Source of the DNA: Anaerolineales bacterium
Lineage (GTDB): Bacteria; Chloroflexota; Anaerolineae; Anaerolineales; UBA6663
Assembly: GCA_017999235.1 (NCBI GenBank)
Contig: JAGOBN010000064.1
Location: forward strand, 1-10,967
Direction: 5' to 3'
DNA length: 10,967 bases
The position numbers and the translations under genes are program-made. Shown in pieces: positions 3-9,302 of this stretch (the stretch's first letter is position 1; each line of letters opens with the position of its first letter). A model generated the notes under the pieces. The model made no database searches. It was given only the letters and a program-made list of their open reading frames with translations, and was not told the origin of the DNA.

Positions 3-2246
3 TTTGTGGTGGCCGGCCTGCTCACCAAGCTGCTGGGCGTGATGCCGTCCCTGGCCTACAATCTGATCCTGCCCATGCTGTTCTCGCTGGTGGGCGTGAA
101 CGCGTTTGGCGTGGCGTATAACCTGGTGGCGGGGGCGAATGTAGGGGTGAGGGGGCTGGGGATTAGAGAGTCAGGGGTTAAGGGGTTAGGGGTCCCTAGC
201 GCCGTTGCCGAAGCCCAGCTGGATGACCGTGCCGTCGGTGAAGCGCAGACGGCCGGCGATGAGGCGGCGCCCGAGTCGCTGATCCCGAATCCCTCCGCCG
301 ACTCCAGCACCGCGCCGGAGCCGCTCATCTCGGATCTCTCCGTTGCGCCAGCCGCGTCCTCCCAGCTCCCAATCACCCAATCACCAATCACCAATCACCC
401 AATCCCCCCTTCTCCCCTCCCCAACGCCTACCTGGCCGGCGTGGCCGCGGCGCTGTTGATCGTGGTCCTCGGCAACCTGGGGCAGGTGCGCACCTACTTG
501 TCCGGCTTCCAGAAAGCGGCGGATCGCCCGGCGTTGGCCGGCACGGTGCTGGGCGACAACGACTTCTCCGCCACGCTGAACGGGATGGTGCGGGTGTTGA
601 CCGGCCGGACCGAGATGCCGGTGGGGCTGGGCTCCTGGTATTGGGACGCCACCCGCATTGTGCCGAACATCAACGGCAGCGGCTCCGAGATCGCCGAGTT
701 CCCGTTTTTCACATTCCTGTACGCGGATCTGCACGCGCACATGATCGTCATGCCCTTCACGGTGCTGGCGATGGGCTGGGCCGTGGCGTATCTGCAGGGC
801 TTTGGCCGGCGGCGGCGCTGGTGGGAGTCCCTGGCGCTGTGGCTGCTGGGCGGGCTGGCCATCGGCGTGACGCGCCCTTCCAACACCTGGGATTACCCCA
901 TGTATCTGGCGCTGGGGAGCGCGGCGGTGCTGGGCGCGCACTGGCTGGCCGATCCGCGCCTGACGCGCCAGAACCTGCTGGCGGCCGGCGGCCGGCTGGC
1001 ACTGCTGATTGGTTTGACGCTGCTGCTCTACCGGCCCTTTGACCAATGGGTGGTGGTGCCGCTGACCGAGCTCAAGCTGTGGACGGGCGAGCGCACCTCG
1101 TTTGAAGCCTATTTCTACATCCACGGTCTGTTCTTGTTCCTGCTGGTGAGCCTGCTGGTGATCGAGGCCCGCCGCTGGCTGGCGGACACGCCGGCCACGG
1201 TGCTGCGCGAAGCCCCGGACTGGCTGGGGACTCTGGCGCTGGTGGGCGTGGCCTTCCTGGCTGTCCTGGGCGGCTTGGTGTATCTGGGCGTGAACGTGGC
1301 CTGGGTGGCGCTGCCGCTGCTGGCCTGGGCCGGCCTCCTGCTCTTACGCCCGCGCCTGGCGCCCGAGAAGCGCGTGGTCTTCTTCCTGCTCGGCACCGGC
1401 CTGGCGGTGACGATGTTTGTGGATCTGGTCACCCTGGGCGGCGACCGCATGAACACGTTCTTCAAGCTGTACATGCAGGTGTGGATGCTGTTCAGCGTGG
1501 CGGCCGGCGCGGCGCTGGCCTGGGTGTGGGCCGATCAGCCCCGCTGGCCCGGGAACTGGCGCAGCGGCTGGACCATCGCCTTGATCGCGCTGGCCGGCGC
1601 GGGCGCGCTGTACACGGTGACCGCGGCCTCGGCCAAGATGCGTGACCGGTTCGTGCCGTACGCGGTCTCCGGCGCCGGCGGCGGGTGCGAACCGCTGCCG
1701 GGCGTGCCGCTGCCGTATGACCGCGGCCGGGAGCCGGCCCAACAGCCGGCTGGCCTGGACGGCCTGCAATACCTCACCTGGAGCGCGTACTGCGAGCAGG
1801 GCTATTTCCTGCCGCTGGTGTACGACTATGACGCCATTCGCTGGCTGCAGGCCAACGTGGCCGGCTCCCCCGTCATCGCCGAGGGCCAGACCTTTGACCT
1901 GTATCGGATATCCAGCCGCTATGCCTGGAACACCGGCCTGCCGGATGTGGTCGGCTGGGACTGGCATCAGCGTCAGCAGCGCGGCGCCCTGCCAACCGAA
2001 TTCATCACCCAGCGCGGCCTGCGGGTCTCGGAGTTTTACGCCACCCTCGATGTGCCAGCGGCCGAAGCCTTCCTGCGCCGCTACGACATCGGCTATGTGA
2101 TCGTGGGGCCGTTTGAGCGCGCGCACTACGAGGCCGCCGGCCTGGCGAAGTTCGAGCAGCTGACGGCCGCCGGCCGGCTGAGGGTGGCGTATCAGAACCC
2201 GGGTGTGACGATCTACGCCGTCAATCCGCCGGCCGCCGGGCAATAG
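3..2246 (+). CDS. DUF2298 (Chlor_Arch_YYY family) multi-spanning membrane protein, 5'-truncated by the window edge
   Basis: Polytopic membrane protein of the DUF2298 / YYY family, thought to be related to GT-C glycosyltransferases; the reaction is unknown. The frame is open to the left edge, so the GTG at 6 is not taken as the start. Aligning the first residues (VAGLLTKLLGV) with the paralog at 4062-6764 (LLIAALIKVTGV) puts the left edge at the end of the family's YYYFGY motif, so about 166 N-terminal residues are missing. Numbering from position 6, conserved parts shared with the paralog are DLHAH (241-245), NTWDYP after RPS, DRMNTFFK (480-487), WLQANVAG with PVIAEG, and a C-terminal soluble part with YDIGYVIVG and a GLPDVVGWDWH segment. 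Residues about 42-139 form a hydrophilic loop absent from the paralog and built partly from short repeats (see repeat entries). The next gene begins 80 nt downstream. Family membership is secure; function is not. Confidence 0.88.
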   Translation, partial: FVVAGLLTKLLGVMPSLAYNLILPMLFSLVGVNAFGVAYNLVAGANVGVRGLGIRESGVKGLGVPSAVAEAQLDDRAVGEAQTAGDEAAPESLIPNPSADSSTAPEPLISDLSVAPAASSQLPITQSPITNHPIPPSPLPNAYLAGVAAALLIVVLGNLGQVRTYLSGFQKAADRPALAGTVLGDNDFSATLNGMVRVLTGRTEMPVGLGSWYWDATRIVPNINGSGSEIAEFPFFTFLYADLHAHMIVMPFTVLAMGWAVAYLQGFGRRRRWWESLALWLLGGLAIGVTRPSNTWDYPMYLALGSAAVLGAHWLADPRLTRQNLLAAGGRLALLIGLTLLLYRPFDQWVVVPLTELKLWTGERTSFEAYFYIHGLFLFLLVSLLVIEARRWLADTPATVLREAPDWLGTLALVGVAFLAVLGGLVYLGVNVAWVALPLLAWAGLLLLRPRLAPEKRVVFFLLGTGLAVTMFVDLVTLGGDRMNTFFKLYMQVWMLFSVAAGAALAWVWADQPRWPGNWRSGWTIALIALAGAGALYTVTAASAKMRDRFVPYAVSGAGGGCEPLPGVPLPYDRGREPAQQPAGLDGLQYLTWSAYCEQGYFLPLVYDYDAIRWLQANVAGSPVIAEGQTFDLYRISSRYAWNTGLPDVVGWDWHQRQQRGALPTEFITQRGLRVSEFYATLDVPAAEAFLRRYDIGYVIVGPFERAHYEAAGLAKFEQLTAAGRLRVAYQNPGVTIYAVNPPAAGQ
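131..192 (+). repeat. G-rich low-complexity repeat block inside the first DUF2298 gene (quadruplex-prone)
   Basis: Seven runs of four or more G lie at 131-135, 144-147, 151-155, 158-161, 174-177, 182-185 and 189-192, separated by short spacers such as TTA and TTAA. Read on the minus strand this is a CCCCTAA/CCCTTAA-type repeat resembling the units at 8577-8597. It is translated in frame as a Gly/Val/Leu-rich stretch in an inter-helix loop. The G-run pattern would allow intramolecular G-quadruplexes in the non-template strand and the mRNA; that is inference. Confidence 0.7.
273..341 (+). repeat. Imperfect in-frame direct repeat within the loop insertion of the first DUF2298 gene
   Basis: Two 24-nt copies, 273-296 and 318-341, start 45 nt apart and match at 19 of 24 positions by eye. 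They encode ESLIPNPS and EPLISDLS. The 45-nt period keeps the frame. A weaker relative encoding QPLIPDL lies at 5319-5342 in the second DUF2298 gene. These may be degenerate members of the same repeat family as the heptamers; the relation is inferred from AATCCC/GATCTC-like cores. Confidence 0.5.
368..422 (+). repeat. CC(C)AATCA tandem heptamer/octamer block plus C-runs, in frame
   Basis: Units are CCCAATCA (368-375), CCCAATCA (376-383), CCAATCA (384-390), CCAATCA (391-397) and CCCAATCC (398-405), followed by C-runs at 414-417 and 419-422. It encodes a Pro/Ile/Thr/Asn-rich stretch (PITQSPITNHPIPPSP) just before the next transmembrane helix. It closes the insertion that opens with the G-rich block at 131-192. 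On the minus strand the C-runs from 398 to 422 give four G-runs. Confidence 0.85.
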
Positions 2247-2315
2247 CCAAGCCTCGCGGTGCTGGAACCCGGACCCATCATCCGGCTGGCCGGCCCGCTT
2301 TTACTTATCGATGCC

Positions 2316-2319
2316 AGGA
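2316..2319 (+). promoter_or_regulatory. Shine-Dalgarno site (AGGA) for the M14 peptidase gene
   Basis: AGGA lies 7 nt before the ATG at 2327 and supports that start. The preceding 80-nt gap (2247-2326) contains no other clear signal. Confidence 0.6.
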
Positions 2320-2326
2320 CTTCTGT

Positions 2327-4033
2327 ATGCCTGAACTGCGTTTTGACACTTACTACAAGTACGCCGACCTCACCGCCCTGCTTCAGGACTTCGCCGCCCG
2401 CTACCCTGCGCTGTGCCGGCTGCAGTCCATCGGGCGCAGCCATGAGCAGCGCGAGATCTGGCTGGTGACCCTGACCAACACCGCCGCCGGCCCGGATACC
2501 GCCAAGCCGGCCTTCTGGGTGGACGCCAATATCCATGCCACCGAGGTGTCGCCCTCCGCCTGCGCGCTCTACACCATCGCCAAGCTTCTGCGGGGCTACG
2601 GCCAGGACCCGCGGCTCACGCGCCTGCTGGATACGCGCGTGCTCTATATCGTGCCGCGTTTCAACCCGGATGGCGCCGAGCTGTATTTGGACGGCCGCCA
2701 CCGCCGCGTCCGCTCGAGCACGCGCCTGTACCCGTTCCCCGAGCCGCGCGACGGCCTGCACGAAGAGGATGTGGATCAGGACGGCCGCGTGCTGTTGATG
2801 CGCGTGCCGGATGCCAACGGCCCGTGGAAGGTCCACCCGGATGAGCCGCGCCTGCTGGTGCCGCGCGCCGCCGACGGCTCGGACAGCGGCCCGTACTATC
2901 GCGTCCTGCCCGAAGGCGCCATCCGCAATTACGACGGCGTGCAGATCAAGGTGGCGCCCAAACCGGAGGGCCTGGATCTCAACCGCAACTTCCCGCTGGA
3001 GTGGGCGGTGGAGAGCGAGCAGCCGGGCGCCGGCCCGTATCCCGTCAGCGAGCCCGAGGTGCGCGCCGTCGTCCAGTTCATCGTGGATCACCCGAACATC
3101 ACGGGCGCCATCGCTTTCCACACGTGGAGCGGCGTCTACCTGCGCCCGTATGGCACCCGCGCGGATGAAACCTTCCCGGCCGAGGACTTGTGGACGTTCC
3201 AGGAGATCGGCAAGCAGGCCACCAAGCTCACCGGGTATCCGGCCATCTCGGTGTATCACGAGTTCCGCTACCACCCCAAAGAAACCATCAAGGGCGTTTT
3301 CGACGACTGGTTGTACGACCACCTGGGCCTGTACGCCTGGACGTGCGAGCTGTGGAACCCGCAGCAGCAGGCCGGCATTGACCTCAATACCGGCCCGGAC
3401 GGCAAGGGCGCCTCGCGCCATATCGAGTGGTCGCGGATCCACCCGGTGGAAGAAGACCTGAAGATGCTGAAGTGGAACGATGAGGTCCTGGCCGGCCGCG
3501 GCTTCGTGCGCTGGTATCCCTTTGACCATCCGCAGCTGGGGCCGGTGGAGCTGGGCGGCTGGGATCTGGAGTATGCCTTCCGCAACCCGCCGCCGCACCT
3601 GTTGGAGAAGGAGATCGCGCCGCACGCCGATTTCATCATCTGGCACGCCCTGATCTCGCCGCTGCTGGAATTCCAGGCTGTGACGGTGACGCCGGTGGGG
3701 GAGGGCGTGTACCGCGTGCGCGCGGTGGTGGAGAACACCGGCTGGCTGTCCACGGCCATCACCGCCCGCGCGGTGGAGAAGAAGCTGGTGCGCCCGCTGG
3801 AGCTGGAGCTGACCCTGCCGGCCGGCGCCGCGCTGGTGAGCGGTGAGCGCAAGGTGGAAGCCGGCCAGCTCGCCGGCCGCGCCCTGAAGCTGTACAGCGA
3901 CGTCTGGGCGTACGATCCCACCGATGACCGCGCCAAAGCGGAGTGGGTGGTGCACGCCCCGGCCGGCGGCGAGGTCACCGTCACCGCCCGCCATCCGCGC
4001 GCCGGCCAGATCACGCGCGCCATTTCTCTTTAA
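2327..4033 (+). CDS. M14-family zinc carboxypeptidase-like metallopeptidase
   Basis: A 568-residue enzyme predicted to hydrolyse C-terminal residues or related amide bonds of peptides; the substrate is unknown. The carboxypeptidase A-type active site is visible. Zinc ligands are H70 and E73 in NIHATE, and H265 in AFHTWSG. Asn219-Arg220 in LNRNF match the substrate-carboxylate-binding pair, and the Arg-rich RHRRVRSS segment could supply the other arginine. Glu341 in WTCELW is the expected catalytic glutamate, preceded by DDWLYDHLG as in the family. Residues about 8-400 form the catalytic domain. The last ~130 residues look like an all-beta accessory domain (VYRVRAVVENTGWLS, EVTVTARHP). No signal peptide or membrane helix is visible, so it should be cytoplasmic. 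It starts at ATG 2327 after an AGGA, and its TAA stop is the first triplet of the heptamer repeat at 4031. It sits between two DUF2298 paralogs, which hints at a shared role but does not show one. The minus strand of this gene is also open over a long stretch; that is a high-GC shadow. Confidence 0.9.
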   Translation: MPELRFDTYYKYADLTALLQDFAARYPALCRLQSIGRSHEQREIWLVTLTNTAAGPDTAKPAFWVDANIHATEVSPSACALYTIAKLLRGYGQDPRLTRLLDTRVLYIVPRFNPDGAELYLDGRHRRVRSSTRLYPFPEPRDGLHEEDVDQDGRVLLMRVPDANGPWKVHPDEPRLLVPRAADGSDSGPYYRVLPEGAIRNYDGVQIKVAPKPEGLDLNRNFPLEWAVESEQPGAGPYPVSEPEVRAVVQFIVDHPNITGAIAFHTWSGVYLRPYGTRADETFPAEDLWTFQEIGKQATKLTGYPAISVYHEFRYHPKETIKGVFDDWLYDHLGLYAWTCELWNPQQQAGIDLNTGPDGKGASRHIEWSRIHPVEEDLKMLKWNDEVLAGRGFVRWYPFDHPQLGPVELGGWDLEYAFRNPPPHLLEKEIAPHADFIIWHALISPLLEFQAVTVTPVGEGVYRVRAVVENTGWLSTAITARAVEKKLVRPLELELTLPAGAALVSGERKVEAGQLAGRALKLYSDVWAYDPTDDRAKAEWVVHAPAGGEVTVTARHPRAGQITRAISL

Positions 4034-4058
4034 CCACTAACCACTACTCACTCATCAC
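4031..4058 (+). repeat. Intergenic tandem heptamers (TAACCAC-type) spanning a stop codon
   Basis: Four 7-nt units run without a break: TAACCAC (4031-4037), TAACCAC (4038-4044), TACTCAC (4045-4051) and TCATCAC (4052-4058). The first triplet is the TAA stop of the M14 peptidase gene. Only TGA separates the array from the ATG of the next gene, so the repeat fills essentially the whole 28-nt gap and leaves no Shine-Dalgarno sequence. Confidence 0.85.
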
Positions 4059-4061
4059 TGA

Positions 4062-6764
4062 ATGTCCGACTTCGCCGCCTTTGCCCTCTGGTATCTCGCC
4101 GTGAGCGCTGCCGGCCTCCTGGCCCTGCCGCTGGCTTTCCGGCTGTTTCGGGCCCTGCCGGAGCGCGGCTATGCGCTGGCGCGGCCGCTGGGCCTGTTGG
4201 CGGCCGGCTATGTGTTCTGGGCGCTGGGCTCGCTGGGGTTTCTGCGCAACGAGGCCGCCAGCGTCTGGGTGGCCGCCGGCCTGGTGTTGGCGGCCGGCCT
4301 GGTCTGGCTGGGGCGCGCCGGCCTGGGGGAGCTGCGCGGCTGGCTGCGCGCCCAGGCCGGCTACGTGCTGCGCGTGGAAGCGCTCTACCTGGCGGCCTTC
4401 GCGCTGCTGGCGGTGGTGCGGGCGTATAACCCGGACATCGTCAGCACCGAGAAGCCCATGGAGTTGATGTTCATCAACGCCATTCTGCGCAGCCCGGCCT
4501 TCCCGCCCAACGATGCCTGGCTGTCCGGCCACGCCATCAGCTACTACTACTTTGGTTATCTGCTGATCGCGGCGCTGATTAAGGTGACCGGCGTGGCCTC
4601 GGCCGTGGCCTTCAATCTCGGGCTGGCCATGCTGTTTGCGCTGACCGTCACCGGCTCCCTGGGCGTGGCCGTCAATCTGCTGGCGCTCACGCAGACGCCG
4701 GACGCCGGCCGCCCGCCGGCGGTCGTCCAAAAAGTGTTTTGGCCCGCGCTGCTGGCCCCGCTGATGATTGTGGCGGCCGGCAACTTCTACGGCGTCGTCC
4801 GGCTGGCCCACGCCAACGGCTGGCTGGCTGATCTCGCGGTGCCGGCCGTGTATTACCATTTTGGCGACGCGGCCCTGGGCGAGCCGGCCGGCCTGCGCGC
4901 CGGCCTGGTGAATGTCTGGACCTGGCTGGACCTCAAAGGCGCGAATACCCCGCCGGCGCCGCCGGCCCAGCCCGGCTTCAACTGGGACCCCGGCTTCTGG
5001 TGGTGGTTCAACGGCGCGCGCATCACCCATGACCGCAATCTGGTGGGCCAGGAAACGGAAGCCATCACCGAAGTGCCGGCCTTCTCGTTTGTGCTGGGCG
5101 ATCTGCACCCGCACGTGCTGGGCCTGCCGTTTGTGTTTGTGGCGCTCGCCCTCGGCTTGAACTGGCTGCTCTGGGCCGCCGGCCTGGCCCGCCCGCCGGT
5201 GCGGACTCAAGCCGCAGCTCAATCGGCCGCCGACGTTCAAAGTGAGTTCAGCGCGGCCGCTGAACCCCGCGTTCCCTCGGCGGCGGGCCGCCGGTCCTGG
5301 GATCCGGGTTTTCCGGTCCAGCCTCTCATCCCGGACCTGTTCGTCTCCGCGCTGATTCTGGGCGGCCTGTCGTTTCTCAACACCTGGGATTTCCCCATCT
5401 ACCTCTTCGTGGTGGTGATGGCCCTGGCGCTGGGGTTGGGGCTGGCTTGGGGCTGGGATGAACTGTGGCGCCGATGGACGGTCGTGGCCGCCTTCGCCGG
5501 CGCGCTGGTGGGGCTGGGGTTCGGCCTGTATCTGCCGTTTTACTTCACGTTCCAATCCCAGGCCGGCGGGCTGCTGCCCAACCTCATCTATCCCACCCGT
5601 CTGCCGCAGACGGTGGTGCTCTTCGCGCAGGTCCTGCTGGCCTCCCTGCTGTATGTGGGCTGGCTGGCGGTGCGCGCGCGGCGCAGCCTGGATTGGCGCG
5701 CGGCGCTGTGGACCGGCGGCGGGCTGCTGGGCTTCCTGATCCTGGCGGTCGCCGCGCTGTCCGTGGGCGCGTGGCTCAACCCGCAGCTGGCCTCCTTCAT
5801 TGATGGCTTTATCGCGCCCCTGAGCCGCACTGAGGCGCTGGCTTTATTGTTCCAGCGCCGGCTGGTGGATTCGCTCACCTCGCTGCTGGCGGCTGGGCTG
5901 ATTGGGCTGTGCGCGGGTTTGGCCGTGGGCGCCCTGCGCCGGCCCACCACCAATCTCCAATCCTCCAATCTCCCAATCCCTAACTCCCTCACCCGCTCGC
6001 CCGCCGTCCTCTTCACGCTCCTGCTGGTCCTCACCGGCGCCCTCCTCTTGCTGGGGCCGGAGTTTGTGTACCTGCGCGATAACTTCGGCACGCGCATGAA
6101 CACGATCTTCAAGTTCTATTTCCAGGCCTGGGTGTTGTGGGGCCTGGCCGGCGCGTTTGGGATCTGGCTGATCCAACGGGAGGCGCGGCCGGGGGTGGGG
6201 CGCGCGGCCGGGATGCTGGTGGGCGTGGCGCTGGCGGCCGGCCTGCTGTACACCGTGCCGGCCGTGTGGAGCAAGGCCAATCACTTCAGCGGGCCGGCCA
6301 CGCTGGATGGGCTGGCGTACTTCGCCCAGCAGCACCCGGACGATTGGGCCGCCATCCAGTGGCTGCAAGCCAACGTGGCCGGCGCGCCCGGCGCGGCTTC
6401 TGCGCCCGTCATCGCGGAGGGCATTGGCGGGCAGTATTGGATTGAAGGCCGCTTCTCGCGTATCGCCATGGCCACCGGCCTGCCCACCGTCATGGGCTGG
6501 CCCGGCCATGAGGCCCAGTGGCGCGGCCGCGCCTTCGACGCGGTGAGCGAGCGCGAGGGCCAGATCCAGCAGTTGTATCAGGTGCGGGATTGGACCGTCA
6601 CGCAAGCCATCCTCACCCGTTACAATATCGAGTACGTCGTCGTCAGCGGCCTGGAGCGCCAGAAATATGGCGTGATCTATCAGGCCAAGTTCGACGCCTA
6701 CATGCGCCCGGTCTTTCAGTCCGGGGATGTGACCATCTATCAGCGCCTGGCCGGCGCCCCCTAA
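4062..6764 (+). CDS. DUF2298 (Chlor_Arch_YYY family) multi-spanning membrane protein, full length
   Basis: A 900-residue integral membrane protein, paralogous to the gene at the left edge, with about 16 likely helices. N-terminal helices lie near residues 9-29, 42-61, 66-86 and 103-121. Family motifs are NPDI (123-126) with EKPME (130-134), SYYYFGY (160-166), GDLHPH (346-351), NTWDFP, and GTRMNTIFK (676-684). A soluble C-terminal part follows, with WLQANVAG, PVIAEG, a GLPTVMGWPGH segment and YNIEYVVVSG. The conserved acidic and His residues would suit a GT-C type active site facing the outside, but no activity is established. Compared with the paralog it carries two extra loops: residues about 380-427 (hairpin-rich DNA) and about 628-648 (CCAATCT repeats). 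Start ATG 4062 directly follows the heptamer array and has no Shine-Dalgarno site. It is followed 18 nt later by another GT-C-like gene. Confidence 0.9.
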   Translation: MSDFAAFALWYLAVSAAGLLALPLAFRLFRALPERGYALARPLGLLAAGYVFWALGSLGFLRNEAASVWVAAGLVLAAGLVWLGRAGLGELRGWLRAQAGYVLRVEALYLAAFALLAVVRAYNPDIVSTEKPMELMFINAILRSPAFPPNDAWLSGHAISYYYFGYLLIAALIKVTGVASAVAFNLGLAMLFALTVTGSLGVAVNLLALTQTPDAGRPPAVVQKVFWPALLAPLMIVAAGNFYGVVRLAHANGWLADLAVPAVYYHFGDAALGEPAGLRAGLVNVWTWLDLKGANTPPAPPAQPGFNWDPGFWWWFNGARITHDRNLVGQETEAITEVPAFSFVLGDLHPHVLGLPFVFVALALGLNWLLWAAGLARPPVRTQAAAQSAADVQSEFSAAAEPRVPSAAGRRSWDPGFPVQPLIPDLFVSALILGGLSFLNTWDFPIYLFVVVMALALGLGLAWGWDELWRRWTVVAAFAGALVGLGFGLYLPFYFTFQSQAGGLLPNLIYPTRLPQTVVLFAQVLLASLLYVGWLAVRARRSLDWRAALWTGGGLLGFLILAVAALSVGAWLNPQLASFIDGFIAPLSRTEALALLFQRRLVDSLTSLLAAGLIGLCAGLAVGALRRPTTNLQSSNLPIPNSLTRSPAVLFTLLLVLTGALLLLGPEFVYLRDNFGTRMNTIFKFYFQAWVLWGLAGAFGIWLIQREARPGVGRAAGMLVGVALAAGLLYTVPAVWSKANHFSGPATLDGLAYFAQQHPDDWAAIQWLQANVAGAPGAASAPVIAEGIGGQYWIEGRFSRIAMATGLPTVMGWPGHEAQWRGRAFDAVSEREGQIQQLYQVRDWTVTQAILTRYNIEYVVVSGLERQKYGVIYQAKFDAYMRPVFQSGDVTIYQRLAGAP
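5246..5292 (+). repeat. Two adjacent inverted repeats (hairpins) in an in-frame loop insertion
   Basis: The first is a perfect 8-bp stem, GTTCAGCG (5246-5253) with CGCTGAAC (5258-5265), closed by a CGGC tetraloop. The second is GGCGGC (5279-5284) with GCCGCC (5287-5292), with only two bases between the arms, so its real stem would be shorter. Both lie inside the 5200-5340 segment that encodes a hydrophilic Ala/Ser/Arg/Pro-rich loop absent from the paralog. This could be a remnant of a small structured repeat such as a REP or MITE; no direct target duplication was found. Confidence 0.5.
5950..5990 (+). repeat. CCAATCT-type tandem heptamer/octamer block, in frame
   Basis: Units are CCAATCT (5950-5956), CCAATCCT (5957-5964), CCAATCTC (5965-5972) and CCAATCCC (5973-5980), then a TAACTCCCTC run-out. 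It encodes a TNLQSSNLPIPNSLT-like polar loop between two transmembrane helices, where the paralog has only a short APEKR loop. The unit is nearly the same as in the block at 368-405. Confidence 0.85.
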
Positions 6765-6769
6765 CCCGC

Positions 6770-6773
6770 AGGA
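6770..6773 (+). promoter_or_regulatory. Shine-Dalgarno site (AGGA) deciding a GTG start
   Basis: AGGA lies 9 nt before the GTG at 6783 and is the main reason for accepting that GTG as the start of the Agl23/GT39-like gene. Confidence 0.6.
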
Positions 6774-6782
6774 CAATCGGCT

Positions 6783-8579
6783 GTGACACTGACACGCGAG
6801 ACTGACCTTTCCTCCCCGGCGGCGGACACCCCGCGCCTCGGTCTGAGCGTCGAGGCCGCGCTTTATCTGGGCCTCTTTGGCCTGGCCCTCTGGCTGCGCC
6901 TGGACGGGCTGGGCGCGGCGCCGCTGAACGACCCGGAAGCGCGGGCGGCTCTGGACGTCTGGCGCTTTGTGCGCGGCGCGCCGGAGGCCGGCCTGCCGGC
7001 CAGCCCGCTCTACTTCTTCTTCACGGCCGTGGCCTTTCTGGTGCTCCCCGCCAGCGATGCCCTGGCGCGTCTGGCGCCCGCGCTGGCCGGCGCCGGCCTG
7101 ACGTGGCTGCCGTGGTTCTTCCGGCGTGAACTGGGCCGCGGGCCGGCGCTCCTCACCGGCGGGCTGCTGGCGGTCTCCAGCACCCTGCTGGCCGCGGCGC
7201 GCAGCGCGGACGGGGCCACGCTGGTGCTCCTGACGTTCGGGGTCGCGTTGGGGTGCCTGCGCCGGTATCAGGCCGGCGGCTCAGCGCGCTGGCTGATCGG
7301 CGCGGCGGCGGCTTTGGGCGCGGCTTTGGCCGGCGGCCGGGACGGCCTGATCGGCCTGCTGCTGCTCGGCCTGGTGGCCGGGGTGGCGGCGCGCTCCCGG
7401 CGCGCGGCTGACGAGGCCGGGCCGGCGCTCCGCACCGCGGTGGCGGCGGAGCGCTGGGCGGTGCTGACGGCGCTGGCGCTCAGTCTGATTCTGGTCGCCA
7501 CGTTCGGGCTGACGTATCGGTCCGGGTTGGCGGCCGTGGGGGCGGGCTGGCTGAACGCGCTGACTGGGTTTGGCCTGGCGGCCGCCGGGCGCTCGCCTTT
7601 CGTGGTTCCCGTTTTCTTGACCGCTTACGAGCCGCTGATCCTGGTATTTGGCCTGGCCGGCGCTGTCCGGGCTTTCCGCACCGGCCAGGCGGCTGGGCGA
7701 GTGTTGGCCGGCGCCGCCCTGCTGGGGCTGATCTTCACGCTGCTCTATTCGGGACGTGAGCTCCGCGATGCGGCCTGGGTCGTGATCCCGCTGACCGCCC
7801 TGGCCGCGCAGGCGCTGTTGGCGTCCGTGGACGCGCCGCGCGAGGAGTGGCTGCAGGCCGGCGCGTTGGCGGGTCTGCTGCTGGCGCTGCTGGTCTTCGC
7901 CGGCCTCAACCTGGCGCGCTATTTTGATCAGGTCACGCTCAACGCCGCGGCCTGGCCGCCCACCTTCAGCACCGCGCCCAGTTTCTGGCTGGCGCTGATG
8001 ACGCTGGTGGTGGCCGGCCTCATTACGTTTCTATTTGGGGTCACCTGGTCGCCGCGCGCCGCTCAGCTGGGGCTGCGGCTGGCCGGCGCCGCCGCTTTGC
8101 TGGCGGTCACCGTCAGCGCCGGCTGGGGGCTGACCCAGTGGCGGGCCGCGGAGCCGGCCGAGGTGTGGTGGCCGCGTCCCACGGCGCTGGATGTGCGCCG
8201 CCTGGTGGCCACGCTGCAGGCGGTCTCCAACTTCAGCGTTGGCCAGGAGACCGAGATTGCGGTGACCGTGGCCGCCAGCCCGGACGGCGCGCTGGCCTGG
8301 GCGCTGCGTGAGTTTCCGCAGGCCGCGTTCACGCCCAGCCTGGACGCGTCCATCGACAGCCCGGTGGTGATCGCGCCGGCCGGCGAGCAAAACCCCGCTC
8401 TGGGCTCGGCCTATGTCGGCCAGGGCTTTACCGTCTATCGCCAGTGGCGTCCTGAGAATCTCTTCACCCACGAGCAAGTGCTCTGGTTCTTCACCCGCCA
8501 GGCGCCGGATGAAGCGGAACTCTATATCCTCTGGGTCCGCCAAGACATCCAGCAGCCCCGGACAGTTATCCAGCCTTAA
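6783..8579 (+). CDS. GT-C fold membrane protein, GT39/Agl23-like (TIGR03663-type) putative glycosyltransferase
   Basis: A 598-residue polytopic membrane protein likely to transfer a sugar from a lipid-linked donor to an external acceptor, or to support that process; donor and acceptor are unknown. The N-terminus has a short cytoplasmic tail, a first helix around residues 22-40 (YLGLFGLALWLRLDGLG), then a first outer loop with NDPEA (49-53). Its D50 and E52 match the acidic pair that GT-C enzymes carry there. Next comes the LYFFFTAVAFLVLP...ALARLAPALAG pattern seen in GT39/Agl23-like proteins, then repeated hydrophobic helices. The last ~130 residues are a soluble region (AWALREFPQAAF, SPVVIAPAGE) ending in ELYILWVRQDI, an ending I associate with the Chloroflexota/haloarchaeal Agl23-like group. 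Start is GTG 6783, supported by an AGGA. Family members often neighbour DUF2298 genes, which agrees with this context. The TAA stop is the first triplet of a heptamer repeat. Confidence 0.82.
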   Translation: MTLTRETDLSSPAADTPRLGLSVEAALYLGLFGLALWLRLDGLGAAPLNDPEARAALDVWRFVRGAPEAGLPASPLYFFFTAVAFLVLPASDALARLAPALAGAGLTWLPWFFRRELGRGPALLTGGLLAVSSTLLAAARSADGATLVLLTFGVALGCLRRYQAGGSARWLIGAAAALGAALAGGRDGLIGLLLLGLVAGVAARSRRAADEAGPALRTAVAAERWAVLTALALSLILVATFGLTYRSGLAAVGAGWLNALTGFGLAAAGRSPFVVPVFLTAYEPLILVFGLAGAVRAFRTGQAAGRVLAGAALLGLIFTLLYSGRELRDAAWVVIPLTALAAQALLASVDAPREEWLQAGALAGLLLALLVFAGLNLARYFDQVTLNAAAWPPTFSTAPSFWLALMTLVVAGLITFLFGVTWSPRAAQLGLRLAGAAALLAVTVSAGWGLTQWRAAEPAEVWWPRPTALDVRRLVATLQAVSNFSVGQETEIAVTVAASPDGALAWALREFPQAAFTPSLDASIDSPVVIAPAGEQNPALGSAYVGQGFTVYRQWRPENLFTHEQVLWFFTRQAPDEAELYILWVRQDIQQPRTVIQP

Positions 8580-8597
8580 TCCCTAATCCCTAACCCC
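8577..8597 (+). repeat. Intergenic tandem heptamers (TAATCCC-type) spanning a stop codon
   Basis: Three 7-nt units, TAATCCC (8577-8583), TAATCCC (8584-8590) and TAACCCC (8591-8597). The first triplet is the stop codon of the upstream membrane protein. The array fills most of the 27-nt gap before cmk, which has no Shine-Dalgarno sequence. Confidence 0.85.
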
Positions 8598-8606
8598 CAA
8601 GCCATC

Positions 8607-9302
8607 ATGTCCCTCCCCTCCATCATCGCCATCGACGGCCCGGTCGCCTCGGGGAAATCCTCCGTCGGCAAGCAGCTCGCCGACCGGCTGGGTTATCTCT
8701 TCTTCGATACCGGCGTGCTCTACCGCGCGGTCACCTACCTGGCGCTGCGGGCGGGGGTGCCGCTGACCGATGCCGAGGCGGTGGCCGAGTATGCCGCGCG
8801 CACGCCGGTGGATGTCCAGCCCCCCACGGTGGCCGATGGCCGGGATTGCACGGTGCTGGCGGCCGGCGCCGAGGACATCACCTGGGCGCTGCGCGCTAAA
8901 GACGTGGAAGACAACGTCTCGCTTGTGGCGGCGGTGCCGGGCGTGCGCCGGGTGCTGACCAGCCAAATGCGCCGCATCGGCCTGCGCGGCCGGGTGGTGA
9001 TGGTGGGCCGCGATGTGGGCACGGTGGTCCTGCCGGAAGCGGACGGCAAGCTGTTTCTCACCGCCTCGGCCGAAGCCCGCGCCCGCCGGCGCTTTGCCGA
9101 AGCCCAGGCGCGCGGCGAGACCCGCACCTTGGCCGAGATCCTGGAAAACCTGCGCGAGCGCGACCGCATCGACTCGTCGCGGCTGACCGCGCCCCTGCGC
9201 GCCGCCGATGACGCCGTGCAGCTCGACACCACCGACCTCGACCTGCCGGGCGTGGTCGCCCAGATCGAAGCCGTGCTGGCCGCCCATGCGCCCGCCGGCT
9301 GA
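8607..9302 (+). CDS. cmk: Cytidylate kinase
   Basis: Cytoplasmic enzyme that transfers phosphate from ATP to CMP or dCMP, recycling the CMP released by phospholipid and glycan synthesis and supplying CDP. At 231 residues it has the usual bacterial length. Visible features are the P-loop GPVASGKS (11-18), the nucleotide-binding FDTGVLYRAV segment with D34 and R40, GRDVGTVV (the GRD[IV]GTVV signature), and the C-terminal RERDRIDSSRLTAPLRAADDAVQLDTT region holding the lid arginines and the conserved Asp-Thr strand. The ATG at 8607 puts MSLPSIIAIDG at the expected distance before the P-loop. The leader is C-rich heptamer repeat without a Shine-Dalgarno site. The 3' end overlaps the pyrophosphatase-like gene by 17 nt, suggesting translational coupling. 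The identification is secure. Confidence 0.97.
   Translation: MSLPSIIAIDGPVASGKSSVGKQLADRLGYLFFDTGVLYRAVTYLALRAGVPLTDAEAVAEYAARTPVDVQPPTVADGRDCTVLAAGAEDITWALRAKDVEDNVSLVAAVPGVRRVLTSQMRRIGLRGRVVMVGRDVGTVVLPEADGKLFLTASAEARARRRFAEAQARGETRTLAEILENLRERDRIDSSRLTAPLRAADDAVQLDTTDLDLPGVVAQIEAVLAAHAPAG

What the first reader, a model, noticed from the sequence alone, without database searches (positions are those of the whole stretch)
368..8597. A dispersed ~7-nt tandem repeat family in gaps and inside genes
Clear arrays of 7-8-nt units with CCAATCN or TAAYCCC/TAACCAC cores occur at 368-405, 4031-4058, 5950-5980 and 8577-8597, with a related block in the opposite orientation at 131-192. All are on one strand-biased theme (C-rich on +, except 131-192). 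They resemble in kind the short tandemly repeated repetitive (STRR) heptamers described in heterocystous cyanobacteria. A heptamer family of this sort in a Chloroflexota-like genome, invading both spacers and coding loops, looks little described.
Basis: partly seen in the sequence, partly recalled or inferred. Interest (0 to 1): 0.7.

Follow-up and report, generated by a model that had tools for sequence, protein, structure and literature searches.

The report
Facing heptamer arrays in Chloroflexota
Short DNA words of seven to eight letters, repeated head to tail, have grown in gaps and protein loops of this bacterium and many relatives, and neighbouring arrays nearly always face each other with their G-rich strands pointing inward, which is a clue to how such repeats are made.

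Summary
The arrays are real. Two period-7 arrays and the CCAATC triplets were not reached in 1,200 shuffled windows; block 131-192 is a looser G-tract cluster. The window's genome is not held. In the nearest relative found (G001; 76% DNA identity) four of five arrays are absent at the matching place and the fifth is altered. CCAATC triplets occur in 126 of 396 genomes of the class.

Heptamer arrays are already in print for Chloroflexus, cyanobacteria, Xanthomonas and Beggiatoaceae.

What goes further is an order rule. Opposite-sense arrays under 400 bp apart run G-rich then C-rich in 34 of 35 cases in 1.52 Mb, in 8 of 9 in other loci, and in 103 overlapping matches against 0 in one genome. It holds in tandem spacers and inside genes, and where the arms carry different words. 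The window's pair 131-192/368-408 obeys it. Xanthomonas pairs in print do too.

Best reading: words grow by serial copying on G-rich 3' ends that face each other. The order is shown; enzyme and event are inferred.

The parts
131..192 (+). Irregular G-rich array (NNNGGGG-like heptads), inside the DUF2298 frame; left arm of the G-then-C pair
   Evidence: TRF 142-193, period 7, score 35; GGGG-spaced pattern twice, reached by 0 of 600 Markov and 4 of 600 codon shuffles; absent at the aligned loop of G001
368..408 (-). CCAATCAC/CCAATCA array (G-rich strand is -), right arm of the pair, same reading frame
   Evidence: TRF period 8, 5.4 copies, score 61; CCAATC at 369, 377, 384, 391, 399; absent in G001 loop
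193..367 (.). Spacer between the two facing arms, codes for a hydrophilic loop
   Evidence: sequence; the loop (residues 36-148) is 71-134 aa in the eight closest full-length homologues and 24-49 aa in 16 of 17 more distant ones aligned
4031..4058 (-). TAACCAC TAACCAC TACTCAC TCATCAC array; starts with the stop codon of the M14 peptidase gene, ends just before the ATG of the second DUF2298 gene
   Evidence: absent in L005/G001, whose spacer is 21 nt and unrelated
5950..5996 (-). CCAATCT/CCAATCCT array running into CCCTAACTCCCTCACCC, inside the second DUF2298 frame
   Evidence: orthologous loop of L005/G001 has a diverged CCAATC-type array; the loop (residues 618-662) is 36-100 aa among 51 proteins aligned and differs widely
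8577..8597 (-). TAATCCC TAATCCC TAACCCC array; starts with the stop codon of the upstream gene, 9 nt before the cmk ATG
   Evidence: not present in the 130 nt before cmk in 5 of 5 family genomes; the same upstream gene end is recognisable in 4 of them, not in G013
3..2246 (+). DUF2298 membrane protein gene (first copy, 5' end cut)
   Evidence: PF10060, E 1.7e-69
2327..4033 (+). M14 zinc carboxypeptidase gene
   Evidence: PF00246, E 1.7e-51
4062..6764 (+). DUF2298 membrane protein gene (second copy)
   Evidence: PF10060, E 7e-98
6783..8579 (+). open frame of 598 aa, rich in hydrophobic stretches, without Pfam match
8607..9302 (+). cytidylate kinase gene
   Evidence: PF02224, E 5.8e-63

Best explanation
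The arrays are short words of 7-9 nt (mostly 7 or 8) that multiply by unit-by-unit copying at places that tolerate extra DNA: gene ends and protein loops. They are laid down with the G-rich (or purine-rich) strand as the growing 3' strand. Where two arrays lie side by side with opposite sense, their G-rich strands point at each other (G array, short unrelated spacer, C array), as expected if both 3' ends at a break or stalled fork are extended by slipping, template-switching DNA synthesis and then rejoined.

Shown: the arrays, their absence from most matching sites of the nearest relative found, the decay of unit similarity along an array, sharing of words among many loci of a genome, and the G-then-C order independent of gene direction and found also with different words in the two arms. 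Inferred: that the G strand is the growing strand, that breaks or fork stalls start the process, and that words are copied from other arrays. No enzyme is identified. No benefit to the cell is needed.
For: Order: periods 7/8, neighbours under 400 bp apart, G->C 34, C->G 1, same sense 15 (CC 10, GG 5), one with a tie; from 400 bp on C->G 28, G->C 6, so arrays come as G...C units (binomial 34 of 35 about 2e-9). Periods 6-9: 38 against 2. Loci not in that sample: 8 against 1 (the pair loci share no 60-mer with the set). Five opposite-strand CCAATC pairs within 200 bp, read by eye off the listing for the window's nearest family, all G->C (one is again among the 8). Whole-genome pattern GGGGATT x2 then, within 120 nt, AATCCCC x2: 103 overlapping matches, at least 26 distinct places in the capped listing, in G110; the reverse order 0 in G110 and 0 in 10 other genomes.

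Not gene direction: 35 G->C pairs (one exactly 400 bp apart added) lie in tandem spacers 15, inside frames of 120 aa or more 8, convergent 7, contig edges 4, divergent 1 (crude gene calls).

Not always a hairpin: the window's arms match no better than shuffled ones (11 against 12.1); of 20 pairs in G077, G115 and G161, 10 score 8 or less, while the five G110 pairs score 16 or more.

Serial copying: mean unit difference 1.10, 1.34, 1.45, 1.71, 2.10 at lags 1 to 5 in 110 arrays; lag 4 above lag 2 in 79, below in 28.

Turnover: in Herpetosiphon loci whose flanks are 81-94% identical, alignments break off at arrays at three sites, and at a fourth an array differs inside an aligned stretch.
Against: The order rule shows polarity, not the act of 3' extension. 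Arms of one pair are more alike than arms re-paired at random within a genome in 4 of 4 genomes (20.0 against 13.6, 10.4 against 6.5, 10.4 against 7.3, 12.5 against 7.1), and in G110 some are mirrored palindromes, which suits hairpins or fold-back copying. In G115 whole composites with a linker recur, which suits a mobile element. The lag test leans towards serial copying because arrays were detected by self-match at lag one unit. The array-rich genomes were chosen for CCAATC content, so densities are not representative. An extra 45.8 kb from two more such genomes held no array of period 7 or 8, and 105 kb of G001 held none of period 7. One 6-nt array (7371) is kept at the same place in three Herpetosiphon species. 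No strain-level empty site was available.
Confidence: 0.38

Rival explanations
1. Selected hairpins: facing arrays are inverted repeats acting as terminators or mRNA 3'-end stems, and slippage merely changes their length.
For: Many G110 pairs in the listing are inverted repeats with different short loops, some with mirrored unit variants; real arms are more alike than re-paired arms in 4 of 4 genomes tested; 23 of 35 pairs lie in spacers; Xanthomonas pairs were described as possible stem-loops (PMC4692102, passages).
Against: A C-then-G palindrome should fold as well (my reasoning, not computed), yet none was found for the GGGGATT word. The window's arms are not complementary beyond chance; 10 of 20 pairs in three genomes are poorly complementary; 8 of 35 pairs lie inside genes.
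Confidence: 0.2
2. Dispersed composite elements (MITE-like, or like the small dispersed repeats of Nostoc, recalled): arrays are internal parts of a short element copied as a whole by a transposase or reverse transcriptase.
For: In G115 one composite of about 100 bp recurs: the eight copies read are 86-92% identical over 89-106 nt, with linker CGAAGAAC in 5, a variant in 2, none in 1. Herpetosiphon word clusters share partial word order.
Against: Herpetosiphon words recombine in different orders and the same word is found on either side, with few exceptions in G-sense on the left and C-sense on the right. No fixed ends or terminal inverted repeats were seen at the window sites, and the window's arrays show no shared linker by eye. 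Target duplications could not be judged at 76% identity.
Confidence: 0.2
3. Plain replication slippage on chance seeds, with 7 nt favoured by the polymerase footprint (proposal of Mrazek and colleagues 2007, as told in PMC4679880).
For: Periods 7 and 8 stand far above Markov sequences (7 first in G110, 8 first in G077) and unit similarity decays along arrays.
Against: Does not explain G-then-C order, sharing of words across a genome, or composites with linkers.
Confidence: 0.12
4. G-quadruplex or i-motif elements kept for gene regulation.
For: Block 131-192 and words such as GGGGATT can form quadruplexes; GGGNATC-type oligos do in vitro (PMC4692102, abstract and passages).
Against: With quadruplex folding on, 131-192 is no better than base shuffles (22 of 100 reach it), nor is 5950-5996 (27 of 100); 368-420, 4031-4061 and 8577-8600 give no quadruplex. 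Many words lack long G runs (GCGAATG, TCGAGTA, AACATAG).
Confidence: 0.04
5. Telomerase-like reverse transcriptase: words are copied from RNA templates onto DNA ends (compare DRT10, which makes 9-nt repeats).
For: Telomere-fusion-like facing order; bacterial RNA-templated tandem-repeat synthesis exists (PMC12632851, abstract and passages).
Against: Many words per genome would need many templates; decay of unit similarity argues against one fixed template. No reverse transcriptase was sought here.
Confidence: 0.06

Closest known systems
GGGNATC / GGGGA(C/T)T heptamer repeats of Xanthomonas and Nostoc (PMC4692102; abstract, sections 3, 11, 14, 16 and passages seen)
   Same: G-rich heptamers spread over the genome, spacers and some genes; in Xanthomonas 70 and 75 pairs in convergent orientation, the same facing order as here; length variation between relatives
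   Different: One consensus unit per species studied there; here several words per array-rich genome, 7-9 nt, arms often of different words. 83% of Xcc repeats are also found in Xac, whereas 4 of 5 window arrays are absent in G001 (relatedness of the two pairs not compared). The authors found only a few pairs in Nostoc PCC 7120.
STRR heptamers of heterocystous cyanobacteria (recalled; the paper was not read)
   Same: tandem heptamers dispersed in a genome; period-7 arrays found here in Nostocales loci
   Different: window units mix 7 and 8 nt; membership of a defined STRR consensus not tested
TAACTGA repeats of marine Beggiatoaceae (PMC4679880; abstract, sections 3 and 8 seen)
   Same: tandem heptamers between genes, mostly right before a start codon, as at 4031-4058 and 8577-8597
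   Different: a single favoured unit there; related units rarely repeated
Heptamer satellites (GATAGRA) of Chloroflexus aurantiacus (PMC6749651; passages seen)
   Same: same phylum, heptamer-derived tandem repeats
   Different: another unit; facing order not mentioned in the passages seen
Interstitial telomere-fusion tracts of eukaryotes (recalled)
   Same: G-rich repeat followed by C-rich repeat, head to head
   Different: single telomere unit and telomerase; nothing here shows a chromosome end

Membership tests
GGGNATC-type G-rich heptamer repeats (Rehm 2015) | tandem G-rich heptamers, two or more units | tested here: met
   8577-8597 three units of period 7; 368-408 period 7 and 8
GGGNATC-type G-rich heptamer repeats (Rehm 2015) | unit GGGNATC or GGGGAYT | tested here: not met
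   window units on the G strand are GATTGGN(N), GGGATTA/GGGGTTA and GTGGTTA
GGGNATC-type G-rich heptamer repeats (Rehm 2015) | convergent pairing of arrays | tested here: met
   131-192 (G) then 368-408 (C), 175 nt apart; 34 of 35 opposite-sense neighbours in relatives
GGGNATC-type G-rich heptamer repeats (Rehm 2015) | quadruplex formation | tested here: inconclusive
   predicted for 131-192 and 5950-5996 but not beyond base shuffles; not for 368-420, 4031-4061 or 8577-8600
STRR of heterocystous cyanobacteria | defined heptamer consensus dispersed in heterocystous cyanobacteria | not tested
   original consensus only recalled; the host here is Chloroflexota by its nearest named loci
REP / REPIN palindromes | 20-40 nt palindrome with complementary arms | tested here: not met
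   window arms no more complementary than shuffled
MITE-like mobile element | fixed ends, terminal inverted repeats, target duplication | tested here: inconclusive
   none seen by eye at the window sites aligned with G001, too distant to judge target duplications; composite copies exist in G115
Telomerase-like repeat addition (DRT10) | reverse transcriptase with adjacent template RNA | not tested
   no such search made; the eight window proteins scanned show no reverse transcriptase domain and the window has no Rfam match at gathering threshold

The most novel reading that the evidence does not exclude
Chloroflexota and some cyanobacteria possess a DNA end-healing activity that adds 7-9-nt G-rich words to exposed 3' ends, using existing arrays or RNA as a source, and then joins the ends. 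Each facing pair is then a scar of one healed break, a bacterial counterpart of a telomere-fusion junction, and array-rich genomes carry many such scars.
Probability: 0.15. Interest if true: 0.85.

Novelty: new variant of a known kind. Interest (0 to 1): 0.5.

Why it matters
Heptamers have been reported as the commonest long simple repeats of many bacteria (as told in PMC4679880), and their origin is open. A nearly strict inward-facing G-then-C order, seen with many words, in two phyla here and in Xanthomonas in print, in spacers and in genes, is a constraint that plain slippage and hairpin selection do not predict by themselves. It makes the origin testable: a mechanism must have a polarity tied to the G-rich 3' strand. 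It also suggests why loops of these membrane proteins look like low-complexity 'word' peptides: some are translated arrays.

Tried and rejected

Synteny of the M14-DUF2298 junction in the 64 loci: by tblastn at 1e-8 only L005 shows a DUF2298 beside M14 (several loci end close to M14), so most orthologous comparison rests on G001.

Transcription direction (purine loading) as cause of the order: rejected, tandem spacers hold the largest share of pairs (15 of 35). A fixed word grammar in Herpetosiphon: rejected, words combine in different orders.

Quadruplex folding of window arrays: not above shuffles. Known RNA family: none at gathering threshold. A first serial-copying test on adjacent units was biased by the way arrays are detected, so I rest on lags 2 to 5, which are less exposed to it.

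A further word-blind sample from two more genomes was small and empty of period-7/8 arrays. A facing-pair search with the GGGGATT word in two Nostoc genomes, G077, G115 and G161 found nothing: it tests only that word.

Literature searches. I found no report of the facing order in Chloroflexota in those listings and the papers opened; the library lacks most subscription papers.

Mended then: period ranking (8 leads in G077), Herpetosiphon identity range, linker count, cmk spacer orthology (4 of 5), arm-match counts.
Full report
OBSERVATION. The window holds four clear tandem arrays with C-rich units on the + strand: 368-408, 4031-4058, 5950-5980 and 8577-8597, and a looser G-rich block at 131-192. 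The core CCAATC recurs with steps of 7 and 8, TAACCAC and TAAYCCC with steps of 7. Against 600 order-2 Markov windows and 600 codon shuffles, two period-7 arrays, the CCAATC triplets and the TAAYCMC doublets were not reached once; the GGGG-spaced pattern of 131-192 was reached by 0 and 4.

PLACE. Pfam places 131-408 in one DUF2298 membrane-protein frame and 5950-5980 in a second; an M14 peptidase lies between them, and a 598-aa frame without Pfam match and cytidylate kinase follow. The arrays at 4031 and 8577 begin with the stop codon TAA of the gene before and run to just before the next ATG (4062, 8607).

HOST. The M14 protein finds 64 loci in genome contigs. The best matches are mostly Chloroflexota records: L005 (an Anaerolineales MAG) at 89% over residues 162-564, then a 'Candidatus Roseilinea' locus at 70%. 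The genome of the window is not held. L005 belongs to a genome called G001 here.

ORTHOLOGOUS SITES. L005 aligns to 2810-7652 at 76% DNA identity. At the M14/DUF2298 junction it has a 21-nt unrelated spacer in place of the array at 4031. At 5950 it has a diverged CCAATC-type array. The first DUF2298 gene of G001 (73% protein identity, L270) has neither arm of the 131-192/368-408 pair in its loop. The 130 nt before cmk lack the 8577 array in 5 of 5 family genomes; the same upstream gene end is recognisable in 4 of them, not in G013. G001 has another word there, TTTTGTCATTGGTCAT. So 4 of 5 arrays are absent and one is altered in the closest relative found. Family genomes differ greatly in CCAATC doublets (4, 1, 2, 76, 27 and 8 in six genomes); the TAAYCCC doublet occurs in 0 of 6, its backward control 5 times.

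SPREAD. CCAATC triplets with 1-2 nt between occur in 126 of 396 genomes drawn from the class, up to 421 matches in G110. The control there, the pattern read backwards (CTAACC), has matches in 44 of 396 genomes by my count of the listing, for example 80 in G188; CTAACC triplets look like one more word of this kind rather than chance. In 27 of the 64 loci, picked by record titles that name neither Chloroflexota nor Cyanobacteria (459,789 bases), no period-7 array was found; 10 arrays of period 6, 8 or 9 were. Two further such loci that I left out, L010 and L050, had none of period 7 either.

MANY WORDS. Samples of array-rich genomes show several unrelated words per genome: in G110 GCGAATG, GGGGATT, TCGAGTA, GGGTGAAG; in G077 GCGAATCA, GATTGGTA, GTGACAAG, GGGGTCA; in Herpetosiphon CACGAAGGA, AGGATGA, AACATAG. 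Periods 7 and 8 lead in these two genomes (17 and 15 in G110, 22 and 28 in G077; at most 0.3 in Markov sequences), periods 7 and 9 in H. aurantiacus (8 and 7). Sampling note: G110, G077, G115, G140, G395 and G161 were chosen for high CCAATC counts and their lowest-numbered contigs taken; H. aurantiacus was sampled every 300 kb and 20 contigs of G001 were taken.

ORDER RULE. I gave each array a sense by whether G or C is more frequent. In ten groups of sequence (1,518,571 bases: six array-rich genomes, H. aurantiacus, three other Herpetosiphon loci, five Nostocales loci, six loci nearest to the window by M14) neighbouring arrays of period 7 or 8 under 400 bp apart were G->C 34, C->G 1, CC 10, GG 5 and one tie. 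Farther apart the counts were C->G 28, G->C 6. With periods 6-9 and twelve groups: G->C 38, C->G 2, CC 15, GG 8, three with a tie. On 70 other loci: G->C 8, C->G 1, the one exception being 337 bp apart and next to a G->C pair; the loci with these pairs share no 60-mer with the first set. In the listing for the window's nearest family, five opposite-strand CCAATC pairs within 200 bp are all G->C (read by eye; one is also). As an exact whole-genome test, GGGGATT twice followed within 120 nt by AATCCCC twice has 103 matches (overlapping; at least 26 distinct places in a capped listing) in G110 and 0 in five other genomes; the reverse order has 0 in G110 and in ten others.

WHAT THE RULE IS NOT. 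It is not gene direction: of 35 G->C pairs, 15 lie in tandem spacers, 8 in genes, 7 in convergent spacers, 4 at contig edges, 1 in a divergent spacer (genes called crudely as longest open frames of 120 aa or more). It is not hairpin pairing alone: in four genomes real arms match better than re-paired arms, yet of 20 pairs in G077, G115 and G161 10 score 8 or less, while the five G110 pairs score 16 or more. The window's own arms match no better than shuffled ones. In G110 many GGGGATT pairs are inverted repeats with differing short loops, some with mirrored unit variants, so hairpins or fold-back copying may matter there. A palindrome of the other order should fold about as well (reasoned, not computed); its absence needs a polar cause.

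GROWTH AND TURNOVER. Unit differences rise with distance inside arrays (1.10 to 2.10 from lag 1 to lag 5, 110 arrays; lag 4 exceeds lag 2 in 79 and falls below in 28). This points to serial copying, with the caution that detection favours neighbours that match. In Herpetosiphon loci whose alignable pieces are 81-94% identical, alignments break off at arrays at three sites and an array differs inside an aligned stretch at a fourth; one 6-nt array (7371) is kept in three species. In G115 a composite of three words recurs: eight copies read, 86-92% identical over 89-106 nt, linker CGAAGAAC in 5, a variant in 2, none in 1. So whole composites can be copied.

PROTEIN LOOPS. Homologues of both DUF2298 proteins carry other word-like peptides in the same loops. 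P0005 has KPEVRSQKLEAEGQKLEV early in the loop and SSDLRPPTSHLQPPIPN at its end; P0002 has GSQKSEVGGQTEAGEWKLE early and QSPITNYKLPIAN at its end. I read these as G-words then C-words. Of the DNA loops looked at, those of G001, G009 and G010 (L270, L271, L269) show no array by eye.

MECHANISM. I commit to serial word copying on G-rich 3' strands that face each other at tolerant sites, most simply by slipping and template-switching synthesis at breaks or stalled forks (0.38). Polarity, turnover and decay of unit similarity are shown; break, enzyme and source of words are inferred. Hairpin selection and composite mobile elements are the main rivals and may be partly true in particular genomes.

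KNOWN WORK. Heptamers as the most abundant class of long simple repeats in most genomes, and the polymerase-footprint idea, are told in PMC4679880 (section 3). Xanthomonas convergent pairs are in PMC4692102, so the facing order is in print for one unit there. Chloroflexus heptamer satellites are in PMC6749651 (passages). PMC4060949 mentions over-represented mirror and oligopurine repeats in Chloroflexus and Roseiflexus (passages). The H. aurantiacus genome paper speaks of no such repeats in the passages found. DRT10 shows RNA-templated 9-nt repeat synthesis in bacteria (PMC12632851, abstract and passages). STRR, the small dispersed repeats of Nostoc and eukaryotic telomere fusions are recalled.

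VERDICT. Observation confirmed; the interpretation as one little-described heptamer family is only partly right. The facing order across different words is the part that goes beyond what I found in print.

Noticed in passing
L214:15729-15830 and L253, L255, L258, L260, L262, L264, L266, L268: Composite of about 100 bp in G115: (GTAGACAA)n, (ACAGTCA)n/(ACAATCA)n, linker CGAAGAAC, (TGCCACC)n, eight copies read at 86-92% identity.
   Followed up: partly
window 131-420 and 5940-6000; proteins P0002, P0004, P0005, P0016, P0123, P0124: Loops of DUF2298 proteins hold peptides that look like translated repeat words, e.g. PITNYKLPIAN (P0002), SEVRSQKSEV (P0005), LPSPSGRGAGGEGE (P0124), different among homologues.
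   Followed up: partly
L043-L046 (Herpetosiphon), L173 and L184 (G110): 9-nt repeat words such as CACGAAGGA and CACAGAGAT beside the 7- and 8-nt ones.
   Followed up: partly
window 4031-4033, 8577-8579; G110 loci L310, L311: Window arrays start with the stop codon of the upstream gene (TAA in C-words). In G110 a TAG lies at the start of or in G-words (by eye; frame not checked).
   Followed up: no
window 2327-6764 and L005; proteins P0003 and P0135: DUF2298 beside the M14 peptidase was seen only in L005 among the 64 loci; P0003 and P0135 are both listed with a contig of 9,284 bases, perhaps the same one.
   Followed up: no
L269/L303 (G010:C90) and L271/L302 (G009:C364): First DUF2298 gene and cmk lie about 7 kb apart on one contig in G010 and G009, though the M14 search found no or only a weak match in these genomes.
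   Followed up: no
L023:19014-19100 (Nostocales) and L299 (G001, before cmk): The same word, TTTGTCATTGGTCAT, in a cyanobacterium and in a Chloroflexota spacer.
   Followed up: no
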